From Actinomycetota bacterium (GTDB lineage: Bacteria > Actinomycetota > Thermoleophilia > Solirubrobacterales > Solirubrobacteraceae), in NCBI GenBank assembly GCA_009699505.1, contig WLOB01000004.1, positions 1 to 36,592 on the forward strand: a stretch of 36,592 nt of DNA, read 5' to 3'. Shown piece by piece: positions 5,544 through 34,533 of the stretch; positions within the stretch are counted from its first letter, which is position 1; every line of letters begins with the position of its first letter. The notes under the pieces were generated by a model that worked only from the letters and a program-made list of their open reading frames with translations, did no database searches and was not told the origin of the DNA. The position numbers were made by a program, and so were the translations under genes.

Positions 5544-5897
5544 ATGTCGGAGTCGCGGCAGACGGACTTTCAAGCGCTCTCGACGGAGATCGCACAGATC
5601 TACAAGACCCACTACGGCCGCGGGCCGACGAAGATCACCGCCGCCTACATGGGCGACGCGGTGGTGTGCCTGCTGGAGGACGTCAACCTCCCCGCACAGA
5701 CCGCGCTGCTCAATCGCGGCAAGACCGACCTCGCGCAAGCGATCCACGCAGAGCTGCAGCTCGGGATGGCCGACGCGATGAGCGAGACGGTCCAGCGGAT
5801 CACCGGCCGGACCGTCCGCACCTACGTGCCCGGCTTCAACGCGACCGGCAACGCGACGACCGACGTCTTCTTCCTCGAACCCGTAGCCGCCGCCTGA
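5544..5897 (+). CDS. DUF2294 family protein
   Basis: A 117-aa protein that covers the full DUF2294 domain. It has an N-terminal helix (ALSTEIAQIYKTHYGRGP), then TKITAAYMGDAVVCLLEDV, a central helical region (LAQAIHAELQLGMADAMSETVQRI), and the C-terminal block TGRTVRTYVPGFN followed by TTDVFFLEP. It aligns throughout with the copy at 27081-27413, which shares GRGP-KI, the V-R-YVPG-N block and F-LEP. The family function is unknown; small DUF2294 proteins are soluble. A purine-rich GGGGGAA precedes the ATG and serves as the ribosome-binding site. It is transcribed alone. Confidence 0.85.
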   Translation: MSESRQTDFQALSTEIAQIYKTHYGRGPTKITAAYMGDAVVCLLEDVNLPAQTALLNRGKTDLAQAIHAELQLGMADAMSETVQRITGRTVRTYVPGFNATGNATTDVFFLEPVAAA

Positions 5898-7773: not shown

Positions 7774-8538
7774 TCAGCGGCGGTCGATGCCGTCGGTGGA
7801 GTCGGTGTCGATGCGCTCCTTGCGGAGCTCCTCGTTGACCTGGACCTCGTCCTGGACGACGTCCTTCTCGAGCCTGACGCGCTCCTTCGGGACGGCGGTC
7901 TTCTCGACGACGGGCTCTTCGGCGTGGAGCGTGACCTCGTGCTCCTCCTCCGAGATCGCGGGGCCGTCGGTGGCGGAGCCGACGTTCTGGTGGGTGATCG
8001 GCTCGCGCTCGAGGCGGACCTCTTCGTGCGAGACCGGGACGGTCTCGGTGACGTTCTCGGTGACGACGTGCTTGCGCAGGCGGACCGTGCCGGCCTCGCG
8101 CTCGGTGGTGCCGACGCGCAGCTCCTCCTCGGAGCGTGTCATCGCGTCGTCGGTGTTCGGGCCCGACGTGTCGTGGCCGGCGCCGCGGCCAGTGGTGTGG
8201 CCGTCGGTGTGGGTGTGCTCCTCGTAGTCGGTGCGGCCGTAGTAGCGGAAGAGCTCGGCCTCCTCCTGCGGGGAGAGGTGCTGGCCGCCGTCGATGTTCG
8301 GGGCGCCCTTGACCTTGTCCTTGTCAAACGGCACCGTCACGGTGTCGCCGGTGGTGGTCGCCTCGGCGATCGGCACGAAGGAGGACTTCGTGCCGAAGAG
8401 GCCGGTGTTGACCAGCGCCCACTCGGGCTGGCCGGTGCGGTCGTCGAGGTAGATCTCGTGGACCTTGCCGATCTTGTGGCCGTCGGGGCCCTCGACCGTG
8501 CGGCCGGTCCAGTCCTGGATCTCGTTGCTCGTCGGCAT
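7774..8538 (-). CDS. PRC-barrel / DUF2382 (YsnF/AvaK-type) stress protein
   Basis: A 254-aa protein. The N-terminal PRC-barrel (residues about 5-80) includes GRTVEGPDGHKIGKVHEIYLDD, WALVNTGLFGTKSSFVP and VTVPFDKDKVKGAP. FRYYGR follows, then an acidic, His-rich linker. The C-terminal DUF2382 half runs from about residue 130 (SEEELRVGTTEREAGTVRLRKHVVTE, then VPVSHEEVRLEREP and VRLEKDVV). Such proteins are linked to general stress and storage-granule or surface roles, with unknown biochemistry. The paralogue at 12294-13091 shares every block. A SigF-like promoter and a strong terminator frame the gene as a single transcript. Confidence 0.92.
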   Translation of the reverse strand: MPTSNEIQDWTGRTVEGPDGHKIGKVHEIYLDDRTGQPEWALVNTGLFGTKSSFVPIAEATTTGDTVTVPFDKDKVKGAPNIDGGQHLSPQEEAELFRYYGRTDYEEHTHTDGHTTGRGAGHDTSGPNTDDAMTRSEEELRVGTTEREAGTVRLRKHVVTENVTETVPVSHEEVRLEREPITHQNVGSATDGPAISEEEHEVTLHAEEPVVEKTAVPKERVRLEKDVVQDEVQVNEELRKERIDTDSTDGIDRR

Positions 8539-8724: not shown

Positions 8725-8841
8725 GCGACATCACAAAATGTCTTCGGATCCCCGCCCGCGGCAGACAAATACCCACATCGTTAGGCGGCTCTACGACCGG
8801 AGGAGCCATCTGCCATACCGCCGCCTGGGGCGGTTGTGGAA

Positions 8842-8863
8842 CACGGTGTTCTGTTTCACCGTG
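8842..8863. promoter_or_regulatory. Candidate operator (inverted repeat) before the TetR-HTH phosphatase
   Basis: Arms CACGGTG (8842-8848) and CACCGTG (8857-8863) have an 8-base spacer. It overlaps a second palindrome, GAACAC-G-GTGTTC. The site ends 36 bases before the chosen ATG. TetR-type HTH proteins commonly bind such sites near their own genes, so autoregulation is plausible. Confidence 0.4.
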
Positions 8864-8899
8864 GTTAACTGCGTCAATGACGGCCGAGATGCATCGCTG

Positions 8900-10324
8900 A
8901 TGAACGACGAGGAGGAGCGTCCGGCCGTTCGGCGCCGACGACGCAGTGACGCAGCGCTCAATCGCGCGCGGATCCTGCACGAGGCCGCCGGGGCGCTGGC
9001 CCGCGACCCCGACGTCGGGATCGCGGAGATCGCGGCTGCGGCGGGGATCAGCCGCGGCACGATCTACCGGCATTTCCCCAACCGCGACGAGCTGCTCGAC
9101 GCGGTCCGCCGGCAGGCCCGTGATGACCGCGAGCTCAACGAGGACGACGCACTGCGCCCCGCCGGCGAGTTGGCGAACACCACGCCGACGCCGCTGTCGG
9201 TGACCGAGGTCCTCAACCGCGTGCCGCCGTTTCAGCTGGCCGAGCAGATCATCGCCGAGGCGCAGCGGATCGACGGGGTCGCGTCCGCGGCGGTCTACCT
9301 CGTCGACCTCGACGGCACGAGCATGCAGCGCCTGGCCGGCGCCGCGACCTTCCCGGACGCGATCTCGGTCCCGCTCGCGGTTGGACCCGAGATCCCGCGG
9401 GAGGGCATCGAGCCGCTGCGCGCGCGGATTGATGAAGCGCTCCCGGGCACCGCGGTCGCGCCCTTGCTGCTTCGCGGTCGGGCGGTCGGGGTGCTGATGG
9501 CCGTCGGTCCGGCGGACGACGCGATCCGCGATCTCGCGCGCGAAGCCGCGGTGGCGCTGGCCCTGGCGGGCGACTACACCGACGCGATCGAGACCGGCCA
9601 GCGGCTGCACCCGATCTCCGCCGCCGCAGAGATCCAGCAGATCCTGCTGCCCCCGCGCCTCGTGCGGATCACCGGGGCGACGCTCGCGGGCAACGTGCTT
9701 CCGGGGTACGAGATCGGTGGGGACTGGTTCGACTACGCAGAGAACGCGGACTGCACCTGGGTCGGGCTCGCCGACGTCGACGGCACCGGCGACTTCGCCT
9801 CCGCCGTCGCCGCCGTGCTGCTCGGCGCGTTCCGCGCGGCCCGGCACCGGAGCGATGACCCCGCCGGCGCGATGCGTGCGTTGCACGACGTCCTCGCGGG
9901 CCTCCCTGCCAAGACGGGTGGTGCGACCGCGACGATCGCGACGTGGAACGCGCCGGCGTCGTTGTTTCGTTGGGTGACGGCGGGGGAGATCCCGCCGATG
10001 CTGATCGACGCCGACGGCGCCATGGAGCTCCTCGACGCCGGCCTGCCGCGCCTCGGCAATCCGGAGATGCCGAACGAGCTTGCGGTGCACGAGCGGCGGC
10101 TGCAGCCGGGTGAGCGGCTGCTGCTGCTCTCCGACGGGCTGCTCGGACGCAAGACCCGCGACGGCGGAACCCTCGGCACCGCCGGCGTTCACGCGGCAGC
10201 GATCAAGGCGCCGCAAATTTCGGCGGCCGGAACGCTCCGAGCGATCGAGGACGTCGTCCGCGAGAACGTGAAGGACCCGCTGGGTGATGACGCAACCCTC
10301 GTCGTCCTGGTCCCCAACCCCTGA
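8900..10324 (+). CDS. TetR-type HTH / GAF-like / SpoIIE-PP2C phosphatase fusion
   Basis: A 474-aa protein. Residues about 15-68 form a TetR-family HTH: ALNRARILHEAAGALARDP, then IAEIAAAAGISRGTIYRHFPNRDELL. A GAF-like sensory region spans about 105-235 (FQLAEQIIAEAQRIDGVASAAVYLVD, VAPLLLRGRAVGVLMAVGP). A PP2C/SpoIIE phosphatase follows with GGDWFD near 273, ADVDGTGD near 290, LLLLSDGLL near 410 and DDATLVVL near 463. These Asp residues are the metal ligands of the family. RsbU/SpoIIE phosphatases dephosphorylate anti-sigma-factor antagonists. A DNA-binding TetR head on such an enzyme is unusual. The ATG at 8900 was chosen because upstream codons look noncoding and overlap a palindrome. Confidence 0.85.
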   Translation: MNDEEERPAVRRRRRSDAALNRARILHEAAGALARDPDVGIAEIAAAAGISRGTIYRHFPNRDELLDAVRRQARDDRELNEDDALRPAGELANTTPTPLSVTEVLNRVPPFQLAEQIIAEAQRIDGVASAAVYLVDLDGTSMQRLAGAATFPDAISVPLAVGPEIPREGIEPLRARIDEALPGTAVAPLLLRGRAVGVLMAVGPADDAIRDLAREAAVALALAGDYTDAIETGQRLHPISAAAEIQQILLPPRLVRITGATLAGNVLPGYEIGGDWFDYAENADCTWVGLADVDGTGDFASAVAAVLLGAFRAARHRSDDPAGAMRALHDVLAGLPAKTGGATATIATWNAPASLFRWVTAGEIPPMLIDADGAMELLDAGLPRLGNPEMPNELAVHERRLQPGERLLLLSDGLLGRKTRDGGTLGTAGVHAAAIKAPQISAAGTLRAIEDVVRENVKDPLGDDATLVVLVPNP

Positions 10325-12293: not shown

Positions 12294-13091
12294 ATGCCCA
12301 CCATCGACGAGGTCCGCGCCTGGCGCGGCCGCCACGTGATCGGAAACGACGGCCACAAGATCGGCACGATCGACGAGCTGTACGCCGACGACGAGACCGG
12401 CAGCCCCGCGTGGGCACTGGTCCACACCGGCCTCTTCGGCCGCAAGTCGTCGTTCCTGCCGATCTCCGACGCCACCCAGGACGGCGACGACGTACGCGTC
12501 CCGTTCGACAAAACGTTCGTCAAAGACGCGCCCGGTATCGACCCCGACGGCCACCTCAGCCCCGCCGAAGAGGACGAGCTGTTCCGCTACTACGGCCGCC
12601 CCGCGGCCCCCCAGGACGCCGACCCGCAGCACCCCGACGAGTCGGTGGCGCAGGACGTCGCCCCCGCGGGGCACGTCGAGCAGGCCGAGACGCCCGGCGG
12701 GCTGCCCGGCCGCGCTCGCGACGTCGACGGTGCAATGACGTTGTCGGAGGAGCAGGTGGAGGTCGGCACGCGTGAGCTGCCCGCCATGAAGGTCCGGATG
12801 CGGAAGGTCACCGTCACCGAGAACGTGCAGATGACTGTCCCCGTCACCCGCGAGGAAGTCCGCCTCGAGGAGGTCCCCTTCGACGCACCCGACGACCCCG
12901 ACACACTCCCCGACGGCGAAGTCACGCTCCGCCACGAGGTCCCGGTCGTGCAGACCCGCACCGTCGACAGCGAACGCGTCCGCCTCGAAAAAGACCGCGT
13001 CACCGACCAGGTCGAGATCACCGAACCTGTCCGACGCGAAGAGGTCGACGTGCACCACAACCGCATCGACGACACGACGCTGCCGACCTGA
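12294..13091 (+). CDS. PRC-barrel / DUF2382 stress protein, second paralogue
   Basis: A 265-aa protein with the same two-domain order as 7774-8538. The PRC-barrel comes first (GRHVIGNDGHKIGTIDELYADD, WALVHTGLFGRKSSFLP, VRVPFDKTFVKDAPG, then FRYYGRP). After a linker rich in Asp, Pro and Gln, DUF2382 begins near residue 145 (SEEQVEVGTRELPAMKVRMRKVTVTE, VPVTREEVRLEEVP, ERVRLEKDRVT). The gene is divergent from the coiled-coil/holin/DUF3618 operon across 222 bases. A GGTAC-N14-GGGTA sequence ending at 12215 could be a weaker SigF-type promoter. The ATG follows the purine-rich GACGAGAGAG. Confidence 0.92.
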   Translation: MPTIDEVRAWRGRHVIGNDGHKIGTIDELYADDETGSPAWALVHTGLFGRKSSFLPISDATQDGDDVRVPFDKTFVKDAPGIDPDGHLSPAEEDELFRYYGRPAAPQDADPQHPDESVAQDVAPAGHVEQAETPGGLPGRARDVDGAMTLSEEQVEVGTRELPAMKVRMRKVTVTENVQMTVPVTREEVRLEEVPFDAPDDPDTLPDGEVTLRHEVPVVQTRTVDSERVRLEKDRVTDQVEITEPVRREEVDVHHNRIDDTTLPT

Positions 13092-13106: not shown

Positions 13107-13548
13107 GGGCCAGACTCGTTCGTACGCCCGCGCGGGCCGATGATCGCCCACGTCCCGGCAGACGATCCTTTCTGGGACGCCTGCGTTGCCCCCGGGGCCA
13201 ACCGGCCCGCGTCTCCCCTCGAACGCATGGTCCTCGTCTGTGGGGTTCTCCGGACAACGAACGTCCAGTTTGCCCTACGGAGGAAGTTGCAGTCAGACGA
13301 CAGGTGTTCATCTCGCGATCTCGCCAAGACGACGTACGCTTCGCTGCGGACGACAGGTTTGCCCAGCAGCACTCCCGCCTTGGGCGACAAGAAATCGCCG
13401 ACGCCACGATCGCGGCCACCGGGCCGTGTGCCGGGAGGATTCACCGAACCGCCGCATGGCGGGAGGATCGTCAACGACCGCACTAACGCTTCGAGCGCAC
13501 CCTTCGTGCGCCGCGGTGCATGGTGCGAGGAGCCAGCCAGGTACCGAT
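13107..13548. other. Intergenic stretch without a convincing gene
   Basis: About 440 bases. Open frames cross it on both strands but have no recognisable family and lack clear starts. An inverted pair, CGTCCC and GGGACG, occurs near 13151-13180. Overall base composition is slightly less GC-rich than the flanking genes. I see nothing else that can be supported. Confidence 0.4.
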
Positions 13549-14167: not shown

Positions 14168-14392
14168 CGCTTGAACCAACGAAGCCGAACAAGGCCGACC
14201 TCTGCATCGGGTCCGACCCGACGCGTGTAGTCGCCATGGCCTCCGGCAGCTACTCAACGGTCAGCGAGCGCGTAAGCACCTCAGCTGTCGTCTGATAACG
14301 GCTAGATCTGACGACGCCAGCGCGCCGGCGGCGTCCCGCTCAAGGATCGGCTGCCGGGGACGTCCGGTGATCGTCGAGCGTTCCGGGCGCGC

Positions 14393-14836
14393 CTACGCGG
14401 TTTCAAGAAGGCGTCGCGCCTGGCCGTAGACCCGGTCGGGTGTGGGGGTGCGGCGTGCGTGATCGTCGACGTCCGCGCGCTTGATGGTGAGTGCGAGTTC
14501 GCGGGCGCCGCCGCGCGGGGCGTCAAGGACGCGCCGCGTGTGGTCCAGGAGCGTCTCGCCGTCGCGTTTGGTCAGGAGCTCGAGCGCTCCGTACTCGTCG
14601 TCGTCGAGGCCGACAAGTAGCGCGACGTCGCCGGGGTCGTGCTCGGACCGCTCGGCGACGTCGTGGACGAACGCGACCGCACGGGCGCTGGTGGGGACGG
14701 TCTCGGCGACCCGCTGGACGTGCTCGATCATTGGCCGGCCATAGCGATCCTGCTGATCGCCGTGGACCCGCCGCGCGAGACGCGCCGCGCGACCGGTGGA
14801 CGTCAGCGACGCAGCGCCGTCGGAAGAACCGGCCAT
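14393..14836 (-). CDS. SpoT/MESH1-like HD-domain protein, cassette copy 1
   Basis: A 147-aa protein with the small HD phosphohydrolase layout. ARLARRVHGDQQDRYGRPMIEHVQRVAETV supplies the first His, AVAFVHDVAERSEHDPGDVALL the HD pair, and ELALTIKRADVDDHARR the final Asp of the H-HD-D metal site. The order and spacing (including LTKRDGE) resemble small alarmone hydrolases and related HD proteins. However, the HDxxED motif reads HDVAER: the Glu is present but the Asp is replaced by Arg. Activity against (p)ppGpp is therefore doubtful. It is divergent from the gene at 14997. The second copy at 32456-32899 differs at only four residues by my comparison. Confidence 0.8.
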   Translation of the reverse strand: MAGSSDGAASLTSTGRAARLARRVHGDQQDRYGRPMIEHVQRVAETVPTSARAVAFVHDVAERSEHDPGDVALLVGLDDDEYGALELLTKRDGETLLDHTRRVLDAPRGGARELALTIKRADVDDHARRTPTPDRVYGQARRLLETA

Positions 14837-14996
14837 GGCGCGACGGTAGCGAACCGCCCGCCCGCTCGCGCCCGAATGACCCGCTGCTTGCCCGCTCCCG
14901 CGGCCCCGGCGGTCGGCACTTCAGCGGCGTGCTTCACTGGATGCAAGCGATGGCAGGTCGCTGCCTCCTTGCGGGGGCCGTCGACGGGGCATCGAG

Positions 14997-15422
14997 ATGT
15001 CGACCGACGAGGCCAGCATGTTCGAGAACGGACGTGGAGGACAGGACCGGGAAGTTCGCGGAGCGCCGGCAGGTGCGGCGTCCGTGCAGTCGCCGCAGGA
15101 CGTCGCGTCGTTGCTGCGTGCCCACGGTGGGGACTACGCGCGACTGCTCCGGCAGCGTCGTCCCGGCACGCGGGCGGACGGCAGCGGGTGGCGGTTCTAC
15201 GCCGACGCGACGGCGCGCGCAGCGCGCAACGACATCGAGGTCCACCAGATCCTCGTCGACATCAGCGTCGCCGCCCAACACCTCGGAACCAACGACGCTC
15301 TACGGTCCTACGCGACGTCGAAGCGGCGACGGGTTGAAGGCCCGCTGGCCGCGGCGTTCCTCGAGGGGATGCTCGACCGCGTCGATCGCTTTCCTCATGA
15401 CGTGCTGCGTCTGGACCGCTGA
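14997..15422 (+). CDS. Hypothetical protein of the duplicated cassette, copy 1 (141 aa)
   Basis: The 141-aa product has a variable N-terminal third (about residues 20-40) and a well-kept remainder: RAHGGDYARLLRQRRPGTRADGSGW, FYADATARAA, IEVHQILVDISVAAQHLG, YATSKRRRVE and AFLEGMLDRVDRFPHDV. It appears to be a soluble helical protein. No known family or catalytic motif is recognised. It is transcribed divergently from the HD gene across 160 bases and lies 71 bases before the third cassette gene. Copy 2 at 33051-33476 has the same length and differs at about 15 positions, which supports real coding under selection. Confidence 0.7.
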   Translation: MSTDEASMFENGRGGQDREVRGAPAGAASVQSPQDVASLLRAHGGDYARLLRQRRPGTRADGSGWRFYADATARAARNDIEVHQILVDISVAAQHLGTNDALRSYATSKRRRVEGPLAAAFLEGMLDRVDRFPHDVLRLDR

Positions 15423-15493
15423 GCGCCGCAACACCCGCTTCACCCGTCTTTCACCTCGACGCCGGGGCGCGCTCCTACCCTCAAGACGTGGGG

Positions 15494-15811
15494 ATGTCGA
15501 CCTCTGACCCCGAACGCTTCGACGCGCTGCTGCTCGCGCTGGCCGATGCGTGGCGGGCGAGCGCGGCCTCCGGGCACGGCGAGCCGGTCGTGTTCTGGCG
15601 CGGCGACCACGGGGCGCACCGAGCGTGGCCGGCCGAGGTCGAGGTGATGACCCGCGTAGAAGCTGAGGAGCTCGTGCGACGGGACCTCGCTCGAGCGGCG
15701 CACCCGGCCAGCGAGGTGATGATGGTCTCGCCTACCCGGCGCGCCCTCGACGCGACGCTCATGCTCGACGAGGGTGGGACCACGGCGCCCCGGACTCCAG
15801 CCAACCGCTGA
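15494..15811 (+). CDS. Hypothetical protein of the duplicated cassette, copy 1 (105 aa)
   Basis: A 105-aa product. Conserved stretches shared with copy 2 are ASGHGEPVVFWRGD, GAHRAWPAEVE, MTR-EAEELV-RD and AAHPASEVMMVSPTRRALDATL. The alternation of short strands and helices suggests a small alpha/beta domain. No family is recognised. The ATG at 15494 was chosen over the GTG at 15488 as the more usual start; both are possible. The extreme C-terminus is variable between copies. Confidence 0.65.
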   Translation: MSTSDPERFDALLLALADAWRASAASGHGEPVVFWRGDHGAHRAWPAEVEVMTRVEAEELVRRDLARAAHPASEVMMVSPTRRALDATLMLDEGGTTAPRTPANR

Positions 15812-15849
15812 TCAACCGACCCGAGCATCCCTGGCGACGGGCCGCGCGC

Positions 15850-15868
15850 GATGTCCCAGTCGACGATC
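15850..15868 (+). repeat. 19-bp motif, half-site 1 of a recurrent palindrome
   Basis: GATGTCCCAGTCGACGATC differs by one base from the sites at 33903-33921 and 36335-36353. It lies 38 bases after the last gene of cassette copy 1, at the distal edge of the duplicated block. Confidence 0.8.
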
Positions 15869-16031
15869 CCTTCCAGGACGGACGCGGCGGCAATCAGAGC
15901 GGCCGAAGCGCTGTCACCTACGGTCGAGCTTGCTGGGGGCTATGACCCGAATGCGACGAGTTCCATCCCAGCACCGCGAACTCGCCGCTATTTGCGGGTT
16001 CCGTCCGGGACCGATGCGTTAATACCGATCG

Positions 16032-18386: not shown

Positions 18387-18677
18387 ATGTACGTTTTGGA
18401 CGTGTCGTCTCCCGCCTCTCTCAGCGTCTCTGAAGCCCGACGCCAACTGTCGTCGATCATCGACCGCGTTGGTGTCGAGCACGCGCCGGTCTATCTCGCG
18501 CGTCGCGGCCGGCGTGTGGCAGCGGTAATCGATGCCGATGACCTCGACCAGCTCCTGGCGCTCGCCGAGGACATGGCCGACATCCGTGCTGCCGAACAGG
18601 CACGCGAAGAGCTTCGCGTGACCGGCGAAGCACCAATCCCGTGGGAGCAGGTCAAGGCCGACCTCGGCCTGACGTGA
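18387..18677 (+). CDS. Phd/YefM-family antitoxin
   Basis: A 96-aa protein. It has the Phd/YefM fold order: SLSVSEARRQLSSIIDRVGVEHAPVYLARRGRRVAAVIDADDLDQL (DNA-binding and dimerisation half), then a helical, acidic, toxin-binding tail (LALAEDMADIRAAEQAREEL). Members bind and neutralise a cognate RelE/ParE-fold toxin and autorepress. The downstream toxin gene overlaps the stop by four bases (GTGA), a classic coupled arrangement. The ATG at 18387 was chosen; an internal GTG at 18402 would also preserve the conserved core. Confidence 0.92.
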   Translation: MYVLDVSSPASLSVSEARRQLSSIIDRVGVEHAPVYLARRGRRVAAVIDADDLDQLLALAEDMADIRAAEQAREELRVTGEAPIPWEQVKADLGLT

Positions 18678-18940
18678 GCTACCGCATCACGCTCGCTCCC
18701 TCGGCCGCCCGTCAACTCCGCAAACAGGACCCGCAGGTCCGTCGACGGATCCAGGCCGCACTCGAGCTGCTCGCCGACGACCCGCGGCCACCGGCCGCGA
18801 CCCGCCTAGTCGGCGGCGCGGGCGAGTGGCGGGTCCGGACCGGCGACTACCGCGTCATCTACGAAATCCACGACGACGAACTGCTCGTCCTCGTCCTCCA
18901 GCTCGGACACCGCCGCGACGTCTACCAACGACGCCACTGA
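18674..18940 (+). CDS. RelE/ParE-superfamily toxin
   Basis: An 88-aa protein with a GTG start overlapping the antitoxin stop. It shows YRITLAPSAARQLRKQDPQVRRRIQAALELLADDPRPPAATRLVGGAGEWRVRTGDYRVIYEIHDDELLVLVLQLGHRRDVY. The R-G-GEWR-R-GDYRVIYEI core and the terminal GHRRDVY are diagnostic for this superfamily. RelE members cleave mRNA on the ribosome and ParE members inhibit gyrase. The conserved Arg-rich C-terminus fits the RelE-type subgroup, but I cannot separate them from sequence alone. A plasmid-maintenance role fits the neighbouring partition and relaxase genes. Confidence 0.93.
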   Translation: MSYRITLAPSAARQLRKQDPQVRRRIQAALELLADDPRPPAATRLVGGAGEWRVRTGDYRVIYEIHDDELLVLVLQLGHRRDVYQRRH

Positions 18941-19476: not shown

Positions 19477-19969
19477 AGGCCGGGACCTCTGGATCCGTCC
19501 GCGCGGCAGCAGTGATGGCCGTCGTCGCCTCGCCGGCTGCGGCGGCTGCGGCGGCGTCATCCTCGCCGTCTTCTTGACCGTCGTCCAGGGCCACGCGTAG
19601 CCCCTCGCGCGTGTGAGGTCGGCGCCGTGCTCCGTGGGCCGGGCGACCTGACCGGCGCGAGCTGATCGCCCACCCCGGCCTCGCTGCACGGAGGCCGGTC
19701 CTACATCGCTGCACGCAGCGGCACTGTTGCGTGCACCGCTTGAAAACCGCTTATACCTCGCTCTCAAAGGTGCCTACGGCACCGACGTACAGGTCCGAAG
19801 TTGAGTGCATATCGACGCGTTGCATCGCTTCAAACCTGTTCAAAGGTCATGCGTGTACGACTCGCTGGAGCTCGCCGTACACGCATGACCTTTTCCACCA
19901 AAGCCCTCTTCGATTGCTTTGGCACACATTATCCCAGCCTTGGAGGGGTGATAGGGTCAACGGCAGCTG
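19477..19969. other. Inverted-repeat-rich noncoding region upstream of the relaxase, candidate oriT
   Basis: A stretch of 493 bases without a convincing gene. Its right half (about 19700-19969) is clearly less GC-rich than its surroundings. It contains IR TGCACGCA-N10-TGCGTGCA (19710-19735), GGTGCC-TAC-GGCACC (19769-19783), direct repeats ACCGCTT (twice) and TTCAAA (twice), and a perfect 18-bp inverted repeat (19842-19893). Mobilization origins usually lie next to the relaxase gene and have such structure, so this is a good oriT candidate. The nick site cannot be defined from sequence alone. Confidence 0.5.
19842..19893. repeat. Perfect 18-bp inverted repeat, oriT or terminator candidate
   Basis: AAAGGTCATGCGTGTACG (19842-19859) pairs fully with CGTACACGCATGACCTTT (19876-19893) across a 16-base spacer, and a T-run follows directly. 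It sits 76 bases before the relaxase ATG. This is either an oriT inverted repeat recognised by the MobF relaxase or an unusually long terminator. Confidence 0.7.
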
Positions 19970-22900
19970 ATGCTGTCGATCGGAACGGTCAGCGCCGGAA
20001 ATCAGGCGCAGCGGGAGTACCACGAGCGGCAGCTCGCGCAGTCCCGCGACGACTACTACCGCGAGACCGAAGGGCCCGCCGGCGTCTGGATCGGGGCCCA
20101 CGCCCAGGCCCTCGGGCTCACTGGTGAGGTCGACATCGAGGGGTTCCGGCGGATGCTCGATGGGCAAGATCCGGCGACCGGCGAGGACCTCGGTGGTCGC
20201 ACGGACCGCCGCAAGACCGTGGCGTTCGACCTCGCGTTCTCGGCGCCGAAGTCGGTCTCGTTGCTCAGGATGGCCGCCGACGAGGAGACCGCCAAGACGG
20301 TCGACCGGGCCCACGAGCGCGCGGTCAAGGCGGCGCTCTTGTACATCGAAGAGGAGGGGTGGAAGGGCCGCGCGCGTGTCACGCACGAGGACGGATCTCG
20401 CGAGCGAATCACCGTCCAAGGTAACGGTGTTATTGGGGTGCTCTACCGCCACGAGACGACCCGCAACGCGGACCCGCAGCTGCACTCCCACGCCGTGCTG
20501 GCCAACGTCGTGCGGCCTGAGAAGGGGGACGCGCAGGCGATCAACTCGCCGGTGCTCTACCAGCAGGCCAAGACCGCCGGCAGCGTCTATCAAGCGGTCC
20601 TGCGCGGCGAGCTCGGCGTCGAGCTCGGGATCGAGTTCGACACCCCGGTCAACGGGCTCTCCGACATCAAGGGCTTTGACCGCGGCCTGATCGACACGTT
20701 CTCCACGCGTCGCGCGGAGATCCTCGCGGGACTCGCCCGGGCCGGCTTCTCCGCCGGCGGCGCCGCGGCGGAGCGCGTCGCGCTCGAGTCCCGTCGCGCG
20801 AAGGACATGCAGCTGGACCACGGGCAGTGGCGCGTCGAGGTCCGCGAGGCGCTGCAGCGCGACGGGTTCGGGATCGAACAGGCCCGGGCGCTCGTGCGGA
20901 CGCCGGCAGAACGCCAGCTCGCGCTCACTGGCGCCGGTGGCGGCGTCGAGGTGCCGCGGCCGCGGTCGCTCGAGGAGCGGCTCCAGGCCGCGCCGCTGGA
21001 CCAGCTGACGGACGTGCGGGCAACCGAAGACGCTCGCCCGATCCGGCAGGCCGCGATGTCGGCCCGAGAGGGCTACACCGCCGACGAGGTTGCGGAGGCC
21101 TTGAGCGGGGTGTTTAAGGATCCGCGCCTGGTGCAGGTTCAGGGCGGCGAGCGGCCGCGATGGACGACAGAGCGGCACCTGCAGCTCGAAGAGCGCGTCC
21201 AACGGGACACCCTCGGGCGGATGCAGGACGCGACCGGCCCGCGCATCGATGTTCAGGGCTACGCGGTGCCGACGAAGACCCCCGACGGGTTCAGCCTCTC
21301 GGTCGAGCAGCGGCAGGTCCTCGGGCGGGTCCTTCAGTCCGGGCACGGTGTCGAGGTCATCCGCGCCCGGGCCGGCGCGGGCAAGACCACCATCGCGGGG
21401 CTCGCGCGTACCGAGTTCGAAGCGCACGGCATCAAGGTCGTCGGCGTCGCCCCGACGCTGCAGGCGCTCGCGGAGCTCGACGACGTCGGCCTGGAGAAGC
21501 GCGACAGCCTCGCGCGGACTGCGTTCTCCGACGGCGAGTTCTCGGAGGTCATGCGGACGATGGACCACCAGACGGTGGTCCTCGTCGACGAGGCCGGGAT
21601 GGCACAGACCAGGGAGATCGCACCGCTCCTGGACCGCGCGGCAGAGCGCGGGGCGAAGGTTGTGGCGATCGGCGACGACGTGCAGCTCGCCGCCGTCGGC
21701 GCCGGCGGGTGGTTCCGGTACCTCGTCGAGCACCAGGACGCACCGGTCCTCGCGCTCACGGAGGTGCACCGCCAACGCGACCCAGTCGAGCGGGACCGAC
21801 TGAACGGCCTGCACCGCGGCGACGTCGCCGGATGGATCAGGTGGGCGGACCAGCACGACCGGATCGACGTCCAACCGACGGTCCAGGACGCCTACGGGGC
21901 CACCGTCAGCCGGTTCGAGGGTGCGCTCGACGCGGTCGACAGCGAGATCGACCGCGTGGTCGTGATGGCACCGCAGAACACGCACCGCCGCGCGCTGAAC
22001 GACCAGCTGCGGCGCGTTGTCGCCGGCCGCGGCGTGCTCGACCGAACCCAGGAGCGCGACTACGACGGCCTCCTGGTCGCGCCCGGCGAACGCCTGGTGG
22101 CAACGAGGACCGTGACCGTCGACGGCACCAGCCGCCGGCTCGTCGAGAACGGAGAGCGGTTCGAGGTCCTGACGGTCGGCGCCGCCGGCGCCCGTGCCCG
22201 CGCGGTCGCCGGAAAACGGCGTGGCGAGCTCGTGCAGCTGCCCGCCGAGGTCCTCCGGCCCGACCAGGACGGGCGCCGCGTCGACCACGCGTACGCGAGG
22301 ACGGTGCACAAGGCGCAGGGGATGACGGTCGATCGGTCAATCCTGTTTGCCCCGGACCCCGGGCGGCTGGGCCGCAACCTCGCCTACGTCGGCCTGACAC
22401 GCACCCGGGACCGTGCCGACCTGGTGACCGTCGCCCCCGACCGGCCGGCAGGGCTCGAGCGCCTGGTGCGCGGGATGTCGGAGCGCCGCGATCACCAGGC
22501 CGCCCTGGCGATCGCCAGCCCCAAGCGCCTGGACCCCGAGCGCGTCACACGCATGAGCGTCCCCGAGCTCGCCGAGCACCGCCACGCACTCCTCACCGAA
22601 GCCCGGCAAGCGATGACGCGCCTGTCGCGGCTGGACCGCGAGGCCCGCGGCGCGTGGGCCGGATCCGCGGACGCGAGGACCGACGCGAACCTGCTCAGAC
22701 ACCGCGACCAGCTAGTAGCCCAGATCGAGGCCCGCGAGCGCCACCTCGCCGAGCAGGACCCCGACGGCGAGAAGCAGGGCCGCGGTCTCATGGAACAGAC
22801 CACACGCCAAGCACAGGAGCGTGACCGCGGCGCCCTCGAGCGACTCGACGAGCAGTTGGTGGGCCGAGAGGTTCAGGGGGTCCCGGAGGCCGACGAGCTG

Positions 22901-23959
22901 CAGGCCCGGATCCAGAAGGCCCGCGGGCCGGCCGAGAGCTACCTCAAGCACCTGCTCGAGCGCCTGGATCACGTCCACGGCCAACAGGTCGACCGCACCG
23001 CCACCGTCGATCCGCTCGCGGTGCCCGAGCACGAGCGGCCGGCCCTGGCGTTGGTGCAGGAAGCAGCGCGGTCCGAACAGCTCCGCAGCCTCACGGTGTC
23101 GGCTGCCCAACAGCTCGGGACCGCTCATCCGCAGGTCGCCACGTGGCTCGAGCGCCATCCCCTCCCCCACGCGGTCACGCAGACCCGGTCGGCAGAGCGC
23201 AAGGTGCCCGTGCGCCGGTACTCGCCGCACCAGCAGGCCTTCGCCGACGCCCTCGATGCATGGCACCGGTCCCGGGGTGAGTGGGCAACCCCCCAGGGTG
23301 CGCGTGACGCACAGGAGCTCTCCGGCACCCACGACCGCCTCGAGCGCGCACACGAGGAGCTGACGTCCGCGACGGTCCGGCGTGACGCGCACCTGATCGA
23401 CGAGCCGTCCCGCCTGCGACGCACCGCACACCGCGAATGGCACGCCGTCCTGGACAGCGTCCAGCAGCGCGTCGACCGGGCCCAGCGGCGCCTCGCCGAC
23501 CTCCAGCAGCAACGCGACGCGGTGGAGAACCGGCTCGGGCGACCGTTCGAAGAGCTGGTCGCGGAGAGCCGTGACGCCACCCTGCAGACCCTGATCGCCG
23601 AACGGGATGCCCGCGAGCTCGAGCACGCCCTCGCGCGCCGTGGCCCGGAGGGCTTCGGGACCAACCGCACCGAGAAGCTGCTCGGACCCCGCGACGGCCT
23701 GAACCCCCAGGACCAGCGGCGCTACGACAAGCTCGCCGGCCAGATCGCCGTCGACCACGTCCTCCGCGACCAACCCACCACCGATCGACAGCAGCGCTGG
23801 CCGACGTTGAACGACCTCAAGGTCATCGGACGAGAGATCGCGCTGTGGCGCGACGCGCACGACCTCCCCCTCACCGAGCGGCAGCAACAGATCGCCGAGC
23901 GCCACCGCCCCGTCGAGCGCGACCGCGGCATCGACCTCGGATTTGGGTTCGACCGGTAA
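19970..23959 (+). CDS. mobF: MobF-family conjugative relaxase with RecD-like helicase domain
   Basis: A 1329-aa relaxase-helicase. The N-terminal TrwC-type relaxase begins MLSIGTVSAG. Candidate catalytic tyrosines are Y17 and the pair near 29-30. SAPKSVSLL and the metal-binding histidines in DPQLHSHAVLANV near residue 171 follow. The helicase starts near 455 with Walker A RARAGAGKTT (about 466), Walker B VVLVDEAGMAQ and a RecD-like end (HKAQGMTVDRS, YVGLTRTRD near 800). The remaining 500 residues are charged coiled coil. Relaxases nick oriT and lead the transferred strand into a recipient. No coupling protein or type IV secretion gene is visible, so this supports mobilization only. Confidence 0.95.
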   Translation: MLSIGTVSAGNQAQREYHERQLAQSRDDYYRETEGPAGVWIGAHAQALGLTGEVDIEGFRRMLDGQDPATGEDLGGRTDRRKTVAFDLAFSAPKSVSLLRMAADEETAKTVDRAHERAVKAALLYIEEEGWKGRARVTHEDGSRERITVQGNGVIGVLYRHETTRNADPQLHSHAVLANVVRPEKGDAQAINSPVLYQQAKTAGSVYQAVLRGELGVELGIEFDTPVNGLSDIKGFDRGLIDTFSTRRAEILAGLARAGFSAGGAAAERVALESRRAKDMQLDHGQWRVEVREALQRDGFGIEQARALVRTPAERQLALTGAGGGVEVPRPRSLEERLQAAPLDQLTDVRATEDARPIRQAAMSAREGYTADEVAEALSGVFKDPRLVQVQGGERPRWTTERHLQLEERVQRDTLGRMQDATGPRIDVQGYAVPTKTPDGFSLSVEQRQVLGRVLQSGHGVEVIRARAGAGKTTIAGLARTEFEAHGIKVVGVAPTLQALAELDDVGLEKRDSLARTAFSDGEFSEVMRTMDHQTVVLVDEAGMAQTREIAPLLDRAAERGAKVVAIGDDVQLAAVGAGGWFRYLVEHQDAPVLALTEVHRQRDPVERDRLNGLHRGDVAGWIRWADQHDRIDVQPTVQDAYGATVSRFEGALDAVDSEIDRVVVMAPQNTHRRALNDQLRRVVAGRGVLDRTQERDYDGLLVAPGERLVATRTVTVDGTSRRLVENGERFEVLTVGAAGARARAVAGKRRGELVQLPAEVLRPDQDGRRVDHAYARTVHKAQGMTVDRSILFAPDPGRLGRNLAYVGLTRTRDRADLVTVAPDRPAGLERLVRGMSERRDHQAALAIASPKRLDPERVTRMSVPELAEHRHALLTEARQAMTRLSRLDREARGAWAGSADARTDANLLRHRDQLVAQIEARERHLAEQDPDGEKQGRGLMEQTTRQAQERDRGALERLDEQLVGREVQGVPEADELQARIQKARGPAESYLKHLLERLDHVHGQQVDRTATVDPLAVPEHERPALALVQEAARSEQLRSLTVSAAQQLGTAHPQVATWLERHPLPHAVTQTRSAERKVPVRRYSPHQQAFADALDAWHRSRGEWATPQGARDAQELSGTHDRLERAHEELTSATVRRDAHLIDEPSRLRRTAHREWHAVLDSVQQRVDRAQRRLADLQQQRDAVENRLGRPFEELVAESRDATLQTLIAERDARELEHALARRGPEGFGTNRTEKLLGPRDGLNPQDQRRYDKLAGQIAVDHVLRDQPTTDRQQRWPTLNDLKVIGREIALWRDAHDLPLTERQQQIAERHRPVERDRGIDLGFGFDR

Positions 23960-24040: not shown

Positions 24041-24171
24041 ACGTACGTATACGTTTGTGCACGTAAGCCTACGTCGGTAGAAGAGGACTTTCGCCGACGT
24101 CGCCGAACAACGAACTACGACAAGCAACGAATGCAAACGTATGCATACGTTGGAAAACGTAGGCTTACGTG
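24041..24171. repeat. Candidate partition site (parS/operator) upstream of parA
   Basis: A 131-base block dense in ACGT words. CACGTAAGCCTACGT (24060-24074) has an exact inverted copy ACGTAGGCTTACGTG (24157-24171). Between them is the 16-bp perfect palindrome AACGTATGCATACGTT (24136-24151), and at the left end the palindrome ACGTATACGT (24045-24054). Type Ib partition systems place the centromere and promoter directly before parA, and this fits. Confidence 0.7.
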
Positions 24172-24205
24172 TGCATCATGGGTGCAGGCCGCCCAGGAGA
24201 CCCAC

Positions 24206-25021
24206 ATGAGCTATGCCCCGATCCTCACGATCGCCAACGAGAAGGGCGGTGTCGGCAAGACCGCCACCGCCGTCAACGTCGCCGCCGCGCTCGCGCGCGC
24301 AGGCCTGCGCGTCGTCGCGGTCGACGGCGACAGCCAGGCCGACCTGACCTGGGGCGTTGGCGCCGAGCCCGACCAGGGCCCCGGATTTGCCGAAGCGATC
24401 GAGCACGCCGCCCAGGGGGACACCTTCGACCCCGCCACGCTCCTCCCGACCGTCGTCGACGGCCTTCGCGTGTTGGCCGGCGGGCAGGGCCTCGCAGAGG
24501 TCGCCCCGGAGCTCTACACCGCCGGTGCTGACGGCGAAGAGTGGGTCAGCACGGCGCTGCGCGCCGTCGCCGAGCTCGAGGACGTCGACGTCGTCGTCAT
24601 CGACACCCCGCCGTCCCCAGGGCCGGTCACCATCGGCGCGATCATGGCCGCCGACCTGACGTTGGCGATCGCCAACGCCCGGCAGGCCAACTCCGTCGCC
24701 GCGCTGCAAACCCTCATCGAACGCGCGAAGGCCATCAGCGCACGGGGCGGGCACGGGGGAGTCCGCGTCGTCCTGCAAGGCCACGACGAGCACCGCGTCC
24801 TGCACCGCGACATGCGCGACCGGCTGCAGGCCGAACCCGAAGGCCTCTTCGCCGTCATCCCGCACAGCAAGGACGTCGAAGAATCCCCCCTCGACGGCGT
24901 CCCCCTAGTCGCCTCCCGCGGCCGCGGGTCCTCCCGCACCGCCTGGGCCCTCTGCGACCTCGCCCAGGACGCCTACAACGTCGCCCGCCAGATCCACACC
25001 CAGCAGGTCACCGCCGCATGA
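24206..25021 (+). CDS. parA: ParA-family partition ATPase
   Basis: A 271-aa protein. The deviant Walker A is ANEKGGVGKTATAVNVAAALA near the N-terminus, with AVDGDSQADLTWG (A' motif) and VDVVVIDTPPSPGP (Walker B). The absence of an N-terminal HTH domain makes it a small, type Ib-like ParA. It acts with a centromere-binding partner to position plasmid copies. AGGAGA lies 5 bases before the ATG. The stop overlaps the next start (ATGA), so translation is coupled with the RHH-type partner at 25018. The repeat block upstream is the likely centromere and operator. Confidence 0.95.
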   Translation: MSYAPILTIANEKGGVGKTATAVNVAAALARAGLRVVAVDGDSQADLTWGVGAEPDQGPGFAEAIEHAAQGDTFDPATLLPTVVDGLRVLAGGQGLAEVAPELYTAGADGEEWVSTALRAVAELEDVDVVVIDTPPSPGPVTIGAIMAADLTLAIANARQANSVAALQTLIERAKAISARGGHGGVRVVLQGHDEHRVLHRDMRDRLQAEPEGLFAVIPHSKDVEESPLDGVPLVASRGRGSSRTAWALCDLAQDAYNVARQIHTQQVTAA

Positions 25022-25424: not shown

Positions 25425-26030
25425 CTATCTGGCGTCGCTTGTCGGCGGCGCGGCGGCGACCCGCCCGCGCTCGATGGCCCGGTAGACGGTCGAGCGGCCG
25501 ACGCCAAAGAGCTCGGCGAGCTCCGCGGGATTCTTCTCGCCGGCCCGGTGCAGCTGAACGAGGTGCCGCTCCTGGCTCGGGGAGAGCTTGGGCTTGCGGC
25601 CGCGGAGCTTGCCGGCCGCACGGGCGACCTCCAGCCCTTCGCGGGTGCGCATGCGGATCAGGTCGGACTCGAACTCGGCGACCATCGCCAGGACGTTGAA
25701 GAGGAGCCGGCCGACGGGGTCGGTCGGGTCGTGGACCGATCCGCCGAGGTTCAGCTTCACCTTGCGGGTTGTGAGCTCGTCGACGATGTCGCGCGCGTCG
25801 GGGAGCGACCTTGCGAGTCGGTCGAGCTTGGTGACGACGAGCACGTCACCGGACCGGCAGGCCGCGAGCGCTTCGCGGAGACCGGGACGCGCGCGGTTGG
25901 TGCCGGTGAGGCCGTGGTCGACGTAGATCCGTTCGGGCTCGACTCCGAGCGCTTGGAGCGCGTTTCGTTGCGCGGTCAGCTCTTGCGCCGCGGTCGAGAC
26001 GCGTGCGTAGCCGATCTTCAGTTCGCTCAC
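25425..26030 (-). CDS. Serine recombinase (resolvase/invertase, Pin-like)
   Basis: A 201-aa protein with the full resolvase/invertase layout. It begins KIGYARVSTAAQ with the catalytic Ser near residue 10, followed by YVDHGLTGTNRARPGL, LVVTKLDRLARSLPDARDIVDEL, LLFNVLAMVAEFESDLIRMRTREGL and KLRGRKPKL. A C-terminal HTH (NPAELAELFGVGRSTVYRAI) binds the site. The GTG at 26030 was chosen because homologues begin just before the GYARVS motif. Plasmid resolvases resolve multimers; an invertase or transposon role is also possible. It lies 50 bases from the partition operon, convergent with it, which fits plasmid maintenance. Confidence 0.93.
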   Translation of the reverse strand: MSELKIGYARVSTAAQELTAQRNALQALGVEPERIYVDHGLTGTNRARPGLREALAACRSGDVLVVTKLDRLARSLPDARDIVDELTTRKVKLNLGGSVHDPTDPVGRLLFNVLAMVAEFESDLIRMRTREGLEVARAAGKLRGRKPKLSPSQERHLVQLHRAGEKNPAELAELFGVGRSTVYRAIERGRVAAAPPTSDAR

Positions 26031-26285
26031 GCGTAGAAGTGTGCCGTATGACGCCCGCTCATCGGGAATCAATTCGGACGGGGCTATCGGGACGACTGGT
26101 CGTCAGGTCCCACCGGGAGGCCCGAATCGCGGATCCTCATCCCGGTAGACGTTCCTCTATGGGACAGGCTTTCGTCGCTGCTGCCGTTTCGTCGTCCCCG
26201 GGACGCGCTGTCCCGGTACGGGGCGTTCGGTGGTCGGAGCTCGCCGATCCTGGTGTGCACGTGATTAGCGGCATAGGGTGGCGAG

Positions 26286-26746: not shown

Positions 26747-27044
26747 AGCCGGGCGGGGCGGCCCGGGACGCTGCGGCGAGCCGGCCGCCTCGCCCGACTC
26801 CGATGGCATCGACCCGGCGGCACGCCGGCTGCCCGTCGTCCCGCCAACCGATGACCATCCGGCACTGCACCTAGACCGGTTCCAGACTGCCCGTTTGACG
26901 TCCGGGGTGTCTCGGGGGTGCGGTGTGGATCCCCCATCGCACGACCGCACCCGCCGAAAGCACTACGACGTCCCGCAGGCGGTCCGTCCGGGCGCCCACG
27001 AGGGGCGCTTGGAAAGGAAGACGGCAGGGTTGCCTGATCCCGAC

Positions 27045-29236: not shown

Positions 29237-29426
29237 CGAGTGTCCCTTCGTGGAAGGCCCCGAGCGTCGCAGCCCGCCCCGACGGACCCACCACGCAACA
29301 CGACATGCGGCGAACGCTTGCGACCGCATCGCAGAGCGCACGCAACTCCCGGTCCCCGTCCCGGTAGATGATCCGGACCGGGACGGCCTCACCCTCGATC
29401 GGGTGTATGTCGTCCCTGGTCGCTCC

Positions 29427-32455: not shown

Positions 32456-32899
32456 TCATGCCGTTTCGAGGAGGCGTCGCGCTTGGCCGTAGACCCGGTC
32501 GGGTGTGGGGGTGCGGCGTGCGTGATCGTCGACGTCGGCGCGCTTGACCGTGAGTGCGAGTTCGCGGGCTCCGCCGCGTGGGGCGTTGAGGACGCGTCGC
32601 GTGTGGTCCAGGAGCGTTTCGCCGTCGCGTTTGGTCAGGAGCTCGAGCGCGCCGTACTCGTCGTCGTCGAGACCGACGAGCAGCGCGACGTCGCCGGGGT
32701 CGTGTTCCGACCGCTCGGCGACGTCGTGGACGAACGCGACGGCGCGGGCACTGGTGGGGACGGTCTCGGCGACCCGCTGGACGTGCTCGATCATCGGCCG
32801 GCCGTAGCGATCCTGCTGATCGCTGTGGACCCGCCGCGCGAGCCGCGCCGCGCGACCGGTAGACGTCAGCGACGCGTCGCCGTCGGAAGAACCGGCCAT
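32456..32899 (-). CDS. SpoT/MESH1-like HD-domain protein, cassette copy 2
   Basis: A 147-aa protein nearly identical to 14393-14836. By my comparison only four residues differ (near positions 8, 26, 105 and 118), all outside the metal site. HDVAER again replaces HDxxED, and RADVDD supplies the last Asp. The ATG at 32899 was chosen because it matches the length of copy 1. An upstream in-frame Met exists but lies in sequence that is not conserved. It is divergent from 33051 over 151 bases. Such small difference at the protein level with more at the DNA level suggests purifying selection. Confidence 0.8.
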   Translation of the reverse strand: MAGSSDGDASLTSTGRAARLARRVHSDQQDRYGRPMIEHVQRVAETVPTSARAVAFVHDVAERSEHDPGDVALLVGLDDDEYGALELLTKRDGETLLDHTRRVLNAPRGGARELALTVKRADVDDHARRTPTPDRVYGQARRLLETA

Positions 32900-33050: not shown

Positions 33051-33476
33051 ATGTCGACCGACGAGGCCAGCATGTTCGAGAACGGACGTGGAGGACAGGA
33101 CCGGGAAGCTCGCGAAACGCCGGCAGGCGCAGGGTCGGTGCACCCGCCGCAGGACGTCGCGTCGTTGGTGCGCGCCCATGGTGGGGACTACGCGCGACTG
33201 CTCCGGCAGCGTCGTCCCGGTACGCGCGCGGACGGCAGCGGGTGGCGGTTCTACGCCGACGCGACGGCCCGAGCGGCCGGCGACGACATCGAGGTCCACC
33301 AGATCCTCGTCGACATCAGCGTCGCCGCCCAACACCTCGGAAGCAACGACGCACTCCGGGCCTACGCGACCTCGAAGCGACGACGGGTCGAAAGCCCGCT
33401 GGCCGCGGCGTTCCTCGAGGGGATGCTCGACCGCATCGATCGCTTCCCTCATGACGTGCGGCGTCTGGACCACTGA
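33051..33476 (+). CDS. Hypothetical protein of the duplicated cassette, copy 2 (141 aa)
   Basis: The same length as 14997-15422, with about 15 differences by eye, clustered in the N-terminal 40 residues. The conserved core (DYARLLRQRRPGTRADGSGW, IEVHQILVDISVAAQHLG, AFLEGMLDRIDRFPHDV) is intact. No known family. The spacing to both neighbours is the same as in copy 1, so the module was duplicated as a unit. Confidence 0.7.
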   Translation: MSTDEASMFENGRGGQDREARETPAGAGSVHPPQDVASLVRAHGGDYARLLRQRRPGTRADGSGWRFYADATARAAGDDIEVHQILVDISVAAQHLGSNDALRAYATSKRRRVESPLAAAFLEGMLDRIDRFPHDVRRLDH

Positions 33477-33547
33477 GCGCCGCAACACCCGCTTCACCCG
33501 TCCTTCACCTCGACGCCAGGGCGCGCTCCTACCCTAAAGACGTGGGG

Positions 33548-33862
33548 ATGTCGACCTCTGACCCCGGACGCCTCGACGAGCTGCTGCTCTCGCTGGCCCA
33601 CGCGTGGCGAGTGAGCGCGGCCTCCGGACACGGCGAGCCCGTCGTGTTCTGGCGCGGCGACCTCGGGGCGCACCGAGCGTGGCCGGCCGAGGTCGAGGCG
33701 ATGACCCGAGCAGAAGCTGAGGAGCTCGTAAAGCGGGACATCGCTCGGGCGGCACACCCTGCGAGCGAGGTGATGATGGTCTCGCCTACCCGGCGCGCCC
33801 TCGACGCGACGCTCACGCTCGACACGGACGGTGGGGCCACCCGAGCTCCAGCCAACCGCTAG
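33548..33862 (+). CDS. Hypothetical protein of the duplicated cassette, copy 2 (104 aa)
   Basis: The counterpart of 15494-15811. Conserved blocks ASGHGEPVVFWRGD, GAHRAWPAEVE, EAEELVKRD and AAHPASEVMMVSPTRRALDATL are kept. The C-terminus is rearranged by small length changes (LDTDGGATRAPANR versus LDEGGTTAPRTPANR). No family is recognised. Confidence 0.65.
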   Translation: MSTSDPGRLDELLLSLAHAWRVSAASGHGEPVVFWRGDLGAHRAWPAEVEAMTRAEAEELVKRDIARAAHPASEVMMVSPTRRALDATLTLDTDGGATRAPANR

Positions 33863-33902
33863 TTGTCGTCCGGCACGAGCATTCCTTGGCGACGGACCCC
33901 GC

Positions 33903-33921
33903 GATGTCCCAGTCGAGGATC
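33903..33921 (+). repeat. 19-bp motif, half-site 2
   Basis: GATGTCCCAGTCGAGGATC is identical to the left half of the palindrome at 36337-36366 plus two bases. It lies 40 bases past the end of cassette copy 2, in the same position as site 1 after copy 1. Confidence 0.8.
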
Positions 33922-33962
33922 GGCTTGCGGGACGCTGCTTTTCGGGGGAGCGTCCACGGGGG

Positions 33963-34496: not shown

Positions 34497-34533
34497 TGGG
34501 TTGCAATCCTACCGTGCCCGCAGTACGGTTCCA

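What the first reader, a model, noticed from the sequence alone, without database searches (positions are those of the whole stretch)
14393..15868. Three-gene cassette duplicated about 16.6 kb apart in direct orientation
An HD-domain gene divergent from two unknown genes is repeated at 32456-33921 with the same order, spacing and gene lengths. The HD proteins differ at about 4 of 147 residues and the middle protein at about 15 of 141, so selection acts unequally. The copies bracket the plasmid-like backbone. Homologous recombination between them could excise or amplify everything in between. The unit may be a functional three-protein module not described before.
Basis: seen in the sequence. 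Interest (0 to 1): 0.75.

Follow-up and report, generated by a model that had tools for sequence, protein, structure and literature searches.

The report
Duplicated plasmid cassette flanked by resolvase sites
A plasmid-like piece of DNA from a bacterium of the genus Patulibacter carries two old, still-maintained copies of a three-gene block (one gene related to alarmone-degrading enzymes, two of unknown function), and the copies end at short sites that look like the cutting sites of the plasmid's own resolvase, which suggests that this enzyme reshuffles the plasmid's modules.

Summary
In detail: 14397-15880 and 32460-33934 are direct copies, 89% identical. All three genes are under unequal purifying selection (pN/pS 0.06, 0.31, 0.39) with equal synonymous divergence, so one old event, not recent amplification. 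Gene 1 is a divergent small-alarmone-hydrolase-type HD protein that usually occurs alone; gene 2 is a helical family seen only in Patulibacter; gene 3 is an orphan. No other locus found holds the trio. The new result is the boundary: the homology stops at the centre of a ~29-bp imperfect palindrome. Related palindromes are scattered between modules (strong: 13151, 15852, 33905, 36337; tentative: 14333, 29357). They match the crossover site (site I) upstream of the contig's own serine resolvase (26138) and of 12 homologous plasmid resolvases; a matrix built only from those outside sites ranks exactly these places first. Half-sites are shared with a plasmid-like contig of another Patulibacter. 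Best reading: a serine-resolvase-shuffled mosaic, like Acinetobacter pdif modules in layout but with a different recombinase. Activity is not shown, and solo site I copies are inert in Tn3.

The parts
14393..14836 (-). Copy A gene 1: 147-aa HD protein of the small-alarmone-hydrolase type
   Evidence: 97% to copy B; profile hit to 7smg (p)ppApp hydrolase 2.4e-13 and RSH hydrolase domains; metal-ligand positions H39, H58-D59 and the KRAD aspartate present, HDxxED read as HDVAER
14997..15422 (+). Copy A gene 2: 141-aa helical protein, Patulibacter-only family
   Evidence: 90% to copy B; homologues in 3 of 232 genomes of the order; AF2 five-helix bundle of copy B, mean pLDDT 79
15488..15811 (+). 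Copy A gene 3: 107-aa orphan protein
   Evidence: 83% to copy B; pN/pS 0.39, p=0.013; no family or clear homologue
32456..32899 (-). Copy B gene 1 (HD, SAH-type)
33051..33476 (+). Copy B gene 2
33542..33862 (+). Copy B gene 3
15852..15880 (+). resolvase site-I-like sequence ending copy A; left half shared with copy B's site, right half different
   Evidence: external-matrix score 15.6 bits, third in the window; homology between copies stops at the site centre
33905..33934 (+). resolvase site-I-like sequence ending copy B
   Evidence: external-matrix score 15.2 bits; shares TGTCCCAGTCGAGGATCGGCT with Patulibacter G007 contig C85
36337..36366 (.). perfect 30-bp palindrome made of the same half-site twice
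   Evidence: external-matrix score 15.1 bits; DNA fold z -6.2
13151..13179 (+). site-I-like sequence left of copy A region
   Evidence: external-matrix score 17.0 bits, second in the window; left half identical (17/17) to a sequence upstream of the G007 C85 resolvase
14332..14362 (-). weaker related palindrome about 31 bp left of copy A (tentative)
   Evidence: GTCCC..AGGATC..GGGAC pattern, all genome hits on this contig; only 7.7 bits by the external matrix
29357..29385 (+). weaker related palindrome (tentative)
   Evidence: 9.8 bits by the external matrix; left half 15/17 to that of 13151
26040..26166 (-). res region of the resolvase: site I at 26138-26166, probable accessory site near 26040-26068
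   Evidence: top external-matrix hit, 21.6 bits; alignable with upstream regions of homologous resolvases
25425..26072 (-). small serine resolvase, proposed to act at the sites
   Evidence: Pfam Resolvase 4.8e-40; up to 82% identical to resolvases on actinobacterial plasmids
19970..23959 (+). TrwC/MobF relaxase-helicase of the backbone
   Evidence: Pfam TrwC 3.8e-67
24131..25021 (+). ParA-type ATPase of the backbone
   Evidence: Pfam AAA_31 8.2e-26
18387..18940 (+). Phd/YefM antitoxin and ParE toxin pair of the backbone
   Evidence: Pfam 3.3e-14 and 1.7e-14

Best explanation
The contig is part of a mobilisable Patulibacter plasmid or integrated element built as a mosaic. Its modules are delimited by short imperfect palindromes that are solo copies of the crossover site (res site I) of its own small serine resolvase. 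The three-gene cassette is present twice because two related modules, each carrying the cassette and ending at such a site, were brought onto one replicon in a single old event, most likely by recombination at the sites between related plasmids or in a cointegrate. Both copies have been kept under purifying selection since. Shown: the duplication, its age and constraint, the site sequences, their match to outside res site I sequences, and the homology breakpoint at a site centre. Inferred: that the resolvase cuts these solo sites, that the joining was intermolecular, and what the cassette does. Gene 1 most likely hydrolyses an alarmone-type nucleotide; the role of genes 2 and 3 is unknown.
For: Homology of A and B ends at the centre of the palindrome: left half TGTCCCAGTCGA(C/G)GATC is shared, right halves CCTTCCAGGACG and GGCTTGCGGGACG differ, and the next 50 bases are 28% identical. 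GTCCC-N16-19-GGGAC occurs 7 times against 0.85 expected, but 0 times at N8-15 and once at N20-30. The pattern GTCCC..AGGATC..GGGAC is found in the 4.37-Mb genome only on this contig, and 3 times in 100 related genomes. Homologous plasmid resolvases have a comparable 28-30-bp site upstream. A matrix from 12 such outside sites ranks 26138, 13151, 15852, 33905 and 36337 as the window's five best; 5 places at 15 bits or more against 0.31 per shuffled window, 0 of 300 shuffles with 4 or more. With the plasmid's own site held out, the same approach puts the site next to the resolvase first on two other plasmids. A second Patulibacter plasmid-like contig (G007 C85, resolvase 78% identical) has solo sites sharing half-sites with the window. 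Retention of both copies.
Against: No recognisable site lies at the left end of copy B (best 8.0 bits), and the one left of copy A is weak (7.7 bits). The left end of homology falls at the HD stop codon, which also fits loss of similarity in unselected flank. In Tn3, two copies of site I without accessory sites do not recombine (stated in PMC12217951). The resident site I appears to have centre TT/AA whereas the dispersed sites have AT, so they would not be expected to recombine with the resident res. Of three other plasmids with this resolvase type, two show only the sites next to the resolvase plus at most one borderline extra, and on the third (pZXY24) no place stands above the shuffles. 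Most sites lie at the 3' ends of genes, as terminators would.
Confidence: 0.55

Rival explanations
1. Ordinary ancient duplication (or two independent acquisitions of related DNA) by homologous or illegitimate recombination; the palindromes are unrelated to how it arose and the homology edges are simply where selection stops.
For: Left edge at the HD stop codon; the HD-to-middle spacer has decayed to about 73% while the genes are conserved. Other intra-contig paralogues exist (two DUF2382 genes, three MpsC genes).
Against: On the right, similarity continues about 50 bases past the gene 3 stop, is strongest in the half-site, then ends abruptly at its centre; the same half-site recurs elsewhere on the contig and in another species.
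Confidence: 0.25
2. The palindromes are contig-specific transcription terminators, or operators of a plasmid regulator, placed at gene ends; the cassette simply carries its own terminator.
For: Most sites are intergenic and downstream of genes; 33905 lies between convergent genes; the one at 36337 folds strongly (z -6.2).
Against: No clear U-tract; four of five sites tested do not fold clearly better than shuffles; the conserved part includes the loop, not only the stem; the site next to the resolvase lies in a divergent promoter region at the place where homologues have res site I.
Confidence: 0.12
3. A functional three-protein module (alarmone-type hydrolase with two partners, for instance antitoxin-like) amplified for dosage.
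For: Same order and spacing kept in both copies, all three genes under purifying selection.
Against: No other locus found has the trio; homologues of genes 1 and 2 occur apart; no synthetase or toxin gene adjoins; no defence-family hit for the three genes.
Confidence: 0.08

Closest known systems
Resolvase-mediated shuffling at res sites (Kholodii 2001, 'The shuffling function of resolvases', cited in PMC12217951 and PMC9501444)
   Same: Exchange of DNA between plasmids at res sites by small serine resolvases encoded on the elements
   Different: Described exchanges, as far as read here, use whole res sites; the dispersed copies here are site I only, without visible accessory sites. The 2001 paper itself was not read
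pdif modules of Acinetobacter plasmids (XerC/XerD; PMC13141974, PMC6449649)
   Same: Plasmid built of small gene modules bounded by short recombination sites, with movement through cointegrates
   Different: Host tyrosine recombinases there; here a plasmid-borne serine resolvase and a different site sequence; activity not shown here
Small alarmone hydrolases (MESH1, 7smg (p)ppApp hydrolase, phage and plasmid HD hydrolases)
   Same: Size, HD motif set, profile similarity 2.4e-13 to 7smg and weaker to MESH1 and Rel hydrolase domains
   Different: HDxxED motif reads HDVAER; no synthetase or toxSAS neighbour seen; activity untested

Membership tests
Small alarmone hydrolase (RSH-type HD hydrolase) | sequence homology to solved SAH/RSH hydrolases | tested here: met
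   profile of 13 homologues hits 7smg 2.4e-13, Rel 7.9e-06, MESH1 0.004
Small alarmone hydrolase (RSH-type HD hydrolase) | metal ligands H...HD...D | tested here: met
   H39, H58-D59 and the aspartate of KRAD present in both copies and mostly conserved in the family
Small alarmone hydrolase (RSH-type HD hydrolase) | catalytic HDxxED motif | tested here: inconclusive
   reads HDVAER in both copies; E kept, D replaced by R; effect on activity unknown
Small alarmone hydrolase (RSH-type HD hydrolase) | hydrolysis of (p)ppGpp or (p)ppApp | not testable with these tools
   needs an enzyme assay
res site of a Tn3-type small serine resolvase (sites at 13151, 15852, 33905, 36337) | 28-30-bp dyad site I of the cognate resolvase type | tested here: met
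   the external-site matrix ranks them just behind the resident site I
res site of a Tn3-type small serine resolvase (sites at 13151, 15852, 33905, 36337) | accessory sites II and III next to site I | tested here: not met
   no second site among the 16 best places lies nearby, whereas the resident res has one at 26040; hence called site-I-like, not res. The matrix was made for site I, so weak accessory sites could be missed
res site of a Tn3-type small serine resolvase (sites at 13151, 15852, 33905, 36337) | recombination by resolvase | not testable with these tools
   needs a plasmid assay
pdif module | XerC and XerD arms around a central spacer, Xer-dependent | not tested
   no Xer site model was run; site length varies 27-30 bp and the match is to serine resolvase sites

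The most novel reading that the evidence does not exclude
Patulibacter plasmids use a plasmid-borne small serine resolvase and solo copies of its site I with a self-complementary AT centre as a module-shuffling system, a serine-recombinase counterpart of pdif modules, and the duplicated cassette is one of its cargo modules.
Probability: 0.3. Interest if true: 0.65.

Novelty: new variant of a known kind. Interest (0 to 1): 0.45.

Why it matters
If the solo sites are active, a simple plasmid resolvase would be doing what XerCD/pdif does in Acinetobacter: cutting and joining gene modules without a transposase or an integron. It would also mean that site I without accessory sites is used in nature, against the rule known from Tn3. 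The cassette itself adds a lineage-specific, alarmone-hydrolase-like cargo gene retained in two copies.

Tried and rejected
Middle protein in viral contigs: none; in plasmids: none. DNA of 13.0-18.5 kb in plasmids: no match. The Pfam GNAT hit of the middle protein (E 0.0066, below cut-off) was rejected: AF2 gives an all-helical bundle. Fold search of the middle protein: no Foldseek match at E<=0.001; the best VIA-align Z of 8.3 is within the range common for helical bundles, so nothing is concluded. Third protein AF2 model: pLDDT 52, not used. First idea that GTCCCAGTCGA is a genome-wide element: its other occurrences share no wider sequence and look mostly coding. Model R1 was built from window sites and is circular for them; conclusions rest on the external matrix. 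A GTCCC..GGGAC palindrome at 31055 and matrix hits at 14962, 21182 and 24016 were not taken as sites: the first and third lie in reading frames, and none has the shared centre. The weak hit at 5994 (13.0 bits) is left open.

Full report
What is there. The window is a complete contig (36,592 bases, 71% GC) of a fragmented, 75%-complete genome of a Patulibacter species (the genus follows from the same-genus genome G001, whose 5,521,807-bp contig is P. minatonensis DSM 18081). A 1.48-kb block occurs twice in direct orientation, 14397-15880 and 32460-33934, 89% identical. Each copy holds an HD-type gene on the minus strand and two small genes on the plus strand. Between the copies lie a 572-aa protein, a Phd/ParE pair, a TrwC-type relaxase, a ParA ATPase, a small serine resolvase, MpsC proteins and two hydrolases.

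Age and selection. Counted by Nei-Gojobori, synonymous and nonsynonymous differences are 26.0/4.0 (HD), 17.0/15.0 (middle) and 11.5/12.5 (third, gap-free part), with pN/pS 0.06, 0.31 and 0.39; each is below 1 (p = 2e-12, 0.0006, 0.013). HD differs from the other two (p = 0.006 each); synonymous divergence does not differ between genes (p 0.24 or more) (other estimators). So this is most simply one event, old enough for 15-22% synonymous change, and both copies stayed functional. It is not a recent amplification.

The genes. The HD protein belongs with small alarmone hydrolases: a profile from 13 homologues hits a solved (p)ppApp hydrolase at 2.4e-13, Rel hydrolase domains at 8e-06 and MESH1 at 0.004; a phage metal-dependent phosphohydrolase family gives 1.5e-12. 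Metal-ligand positions are kept but HDxxED reads HDVAER, so activity may be altered. Homologues are in 9 of 61 genomes searched (own included) and on rhizobial and other plasmids. In none of the fetched loci, which reach about 1.5 kb to each side, do genes 2 or 3 lie beside them. The middle protein is found in 3 of 232 genomes of its order, all Patulibacter, in varied chromosomal contexts in P. minatonensis. In the window's own genome it also occurs on two plasmid-like contigs, on both near a nuclease-like gene; one (C141) also has ParA and a resolvase, the other (C145) a relative of the 572-aa protein. Its model is a five-helix bundle with no clear relative. The third protein has no convincing relative and no confident model. 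The trio is therefore not a conserved module as far as searched.

The boundary. After the gene 3 stop, the two copies stay similar for about 50 bases, most strongly in GATGTCCCAGTCGA(C/G)GATC, and then diverge completely: 28% identity over the next 50 bases. The same 19-mer is at 36335, inside a perfect 30-bp palindrome; 0.01 matches to it, at up to three mismatches, are expected in the window by chance. Palindromes of the form GTCCC-N16-19-GGGAC number 7 against 0.85 expected, and the excess is confined to that spacing. The version with AGGATC in the centre is found in the genome only on this contig.

What the palindromes are. A related site lies at 26138, 66 bp upstream of the serine resolvase. 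Resolvases roughly 69-82% identical to it on plasmids of Pseudonocardia, Kocuria, Arthrobacter, Clavibacter, Nocardioides, Rhodococcus, Curtobacterium and Leifsonia, and on pAG1 of C. glutamicum, have a comparable 28-30-bp dyad upstream, in the place of res site I. That serine resolvases cleave at the central 2 bp of site I is stated in PMC12217951. I built a half-site matrix from 12 of these outside sites only. In the window its five best places are 26138 (21.6 bits), 13151 (17.0), 15852 (15.6), 33905 (15.2) and 36337 (15.1). Shuffled windows have 0.31 places at 15 bits or more, never four in 300 trials. The test is independent of the window's sites, although the outside sites were picked partly by eye near the expected position. 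The sites at 14333, 29357 and 5994 are weaker (7.7, 9.8 and 13.0 bits) and tentative.

Half-site reassortment. The left half CGTCCCGGCAGACGATC of 13151 is found unchanged in Patulibacter G007 contig C85, about 70 bp upstream of a resolvase 78% identical, where it continues differently; the stretch TGTCCCAGTCGAGGATCGGCT of 33905 is there too (C85 near 28892), again with another continuation. Halves shared and partners changed, with the joint at or near the centre, is what site-specific recombination leaves behind. On C85 a 54-bp stretch matching the window's res region (26040-26093) lies 4.8 kb from the resolvase and inverted, which also suggests rearrangement.

Mechanism and doubts. The simplest account is that resolvase-driven recombination between such sites, probably in a cointegrate of related plasmids, assembled this mosaic and brought in a second cassette copy. 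Doubts: copy B has no visible left site; the dispersed sites lack visible accessory sites, and Tn3 site I alone does not recombine (PMC12217951); the resident site appears to have centre TT/AA while the dispersed ones have AT, so they may pair with each other but not with the resident res (my reading of the centres); of three other plasmids with the same resolvase type, none shows such dispersal beyond one borderline place. Terminators remain possible, since most sites sit at gene ends.

Verdict. Observation confirmed; the module claim is not supported; the excision claim has no evidence. The boundary sites make this a probable case of resolvase shuffling, close to known kinds of plasmid module exchange, in a genus for which I found no earlier description in the searched library.

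Noticed in passing
19842-19893: Imperfect inverted repeat (about 52 bp) some 75 bp upstream of the TrwC relaxase gene; candidate oriT or regulatory site.
   Followed up: no
26856-26892: 37 bases identical to own contig C141 1820-1856, where they form the 3' end of another resolvase gene and its downstream sequence; here no resolvase ORF adjoins, so perhaps a remnant.
   Followed up: partly
5544-5897, 26286-26666, 27081-27698: Three MpsC-family genes on one contig.
   Followed up: no
7774-8538 and 12294-13091: Inverted pair of PRC-barrel/DUF2382 genes, 73% identical DNA over 312 bp, flanking a gene with TetR-type HTH and SpoIIE domains at 8738-10324.
   Followed up: no
L038 (own contig C173) 758-2087: Truncated HD homologue (residues 15-81, 91% identical) directly before genes that look like an Xre-RES toxin-antitoxin pair; the TA identity is by eye.
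   Followed up: no
L128, L129 (own contigs C223, C217): Two further relaxases about 66% identical to the window's, so the strain may carry at least three related mobilisable elements.
   Followed up: partly
G007 contig C85 27484-32952 (L135): The resolvase and the sequence matching the res accessory region are 4.8 kb apart and inverted relative to the window.
   Followed up: partly
33963-36019: PadR regulator divergent from an RPE65-type carotenoid oxygenase, lying between the site-like palindromes at 33905 and 36337; looks like another bounded module.
   Followed up: no
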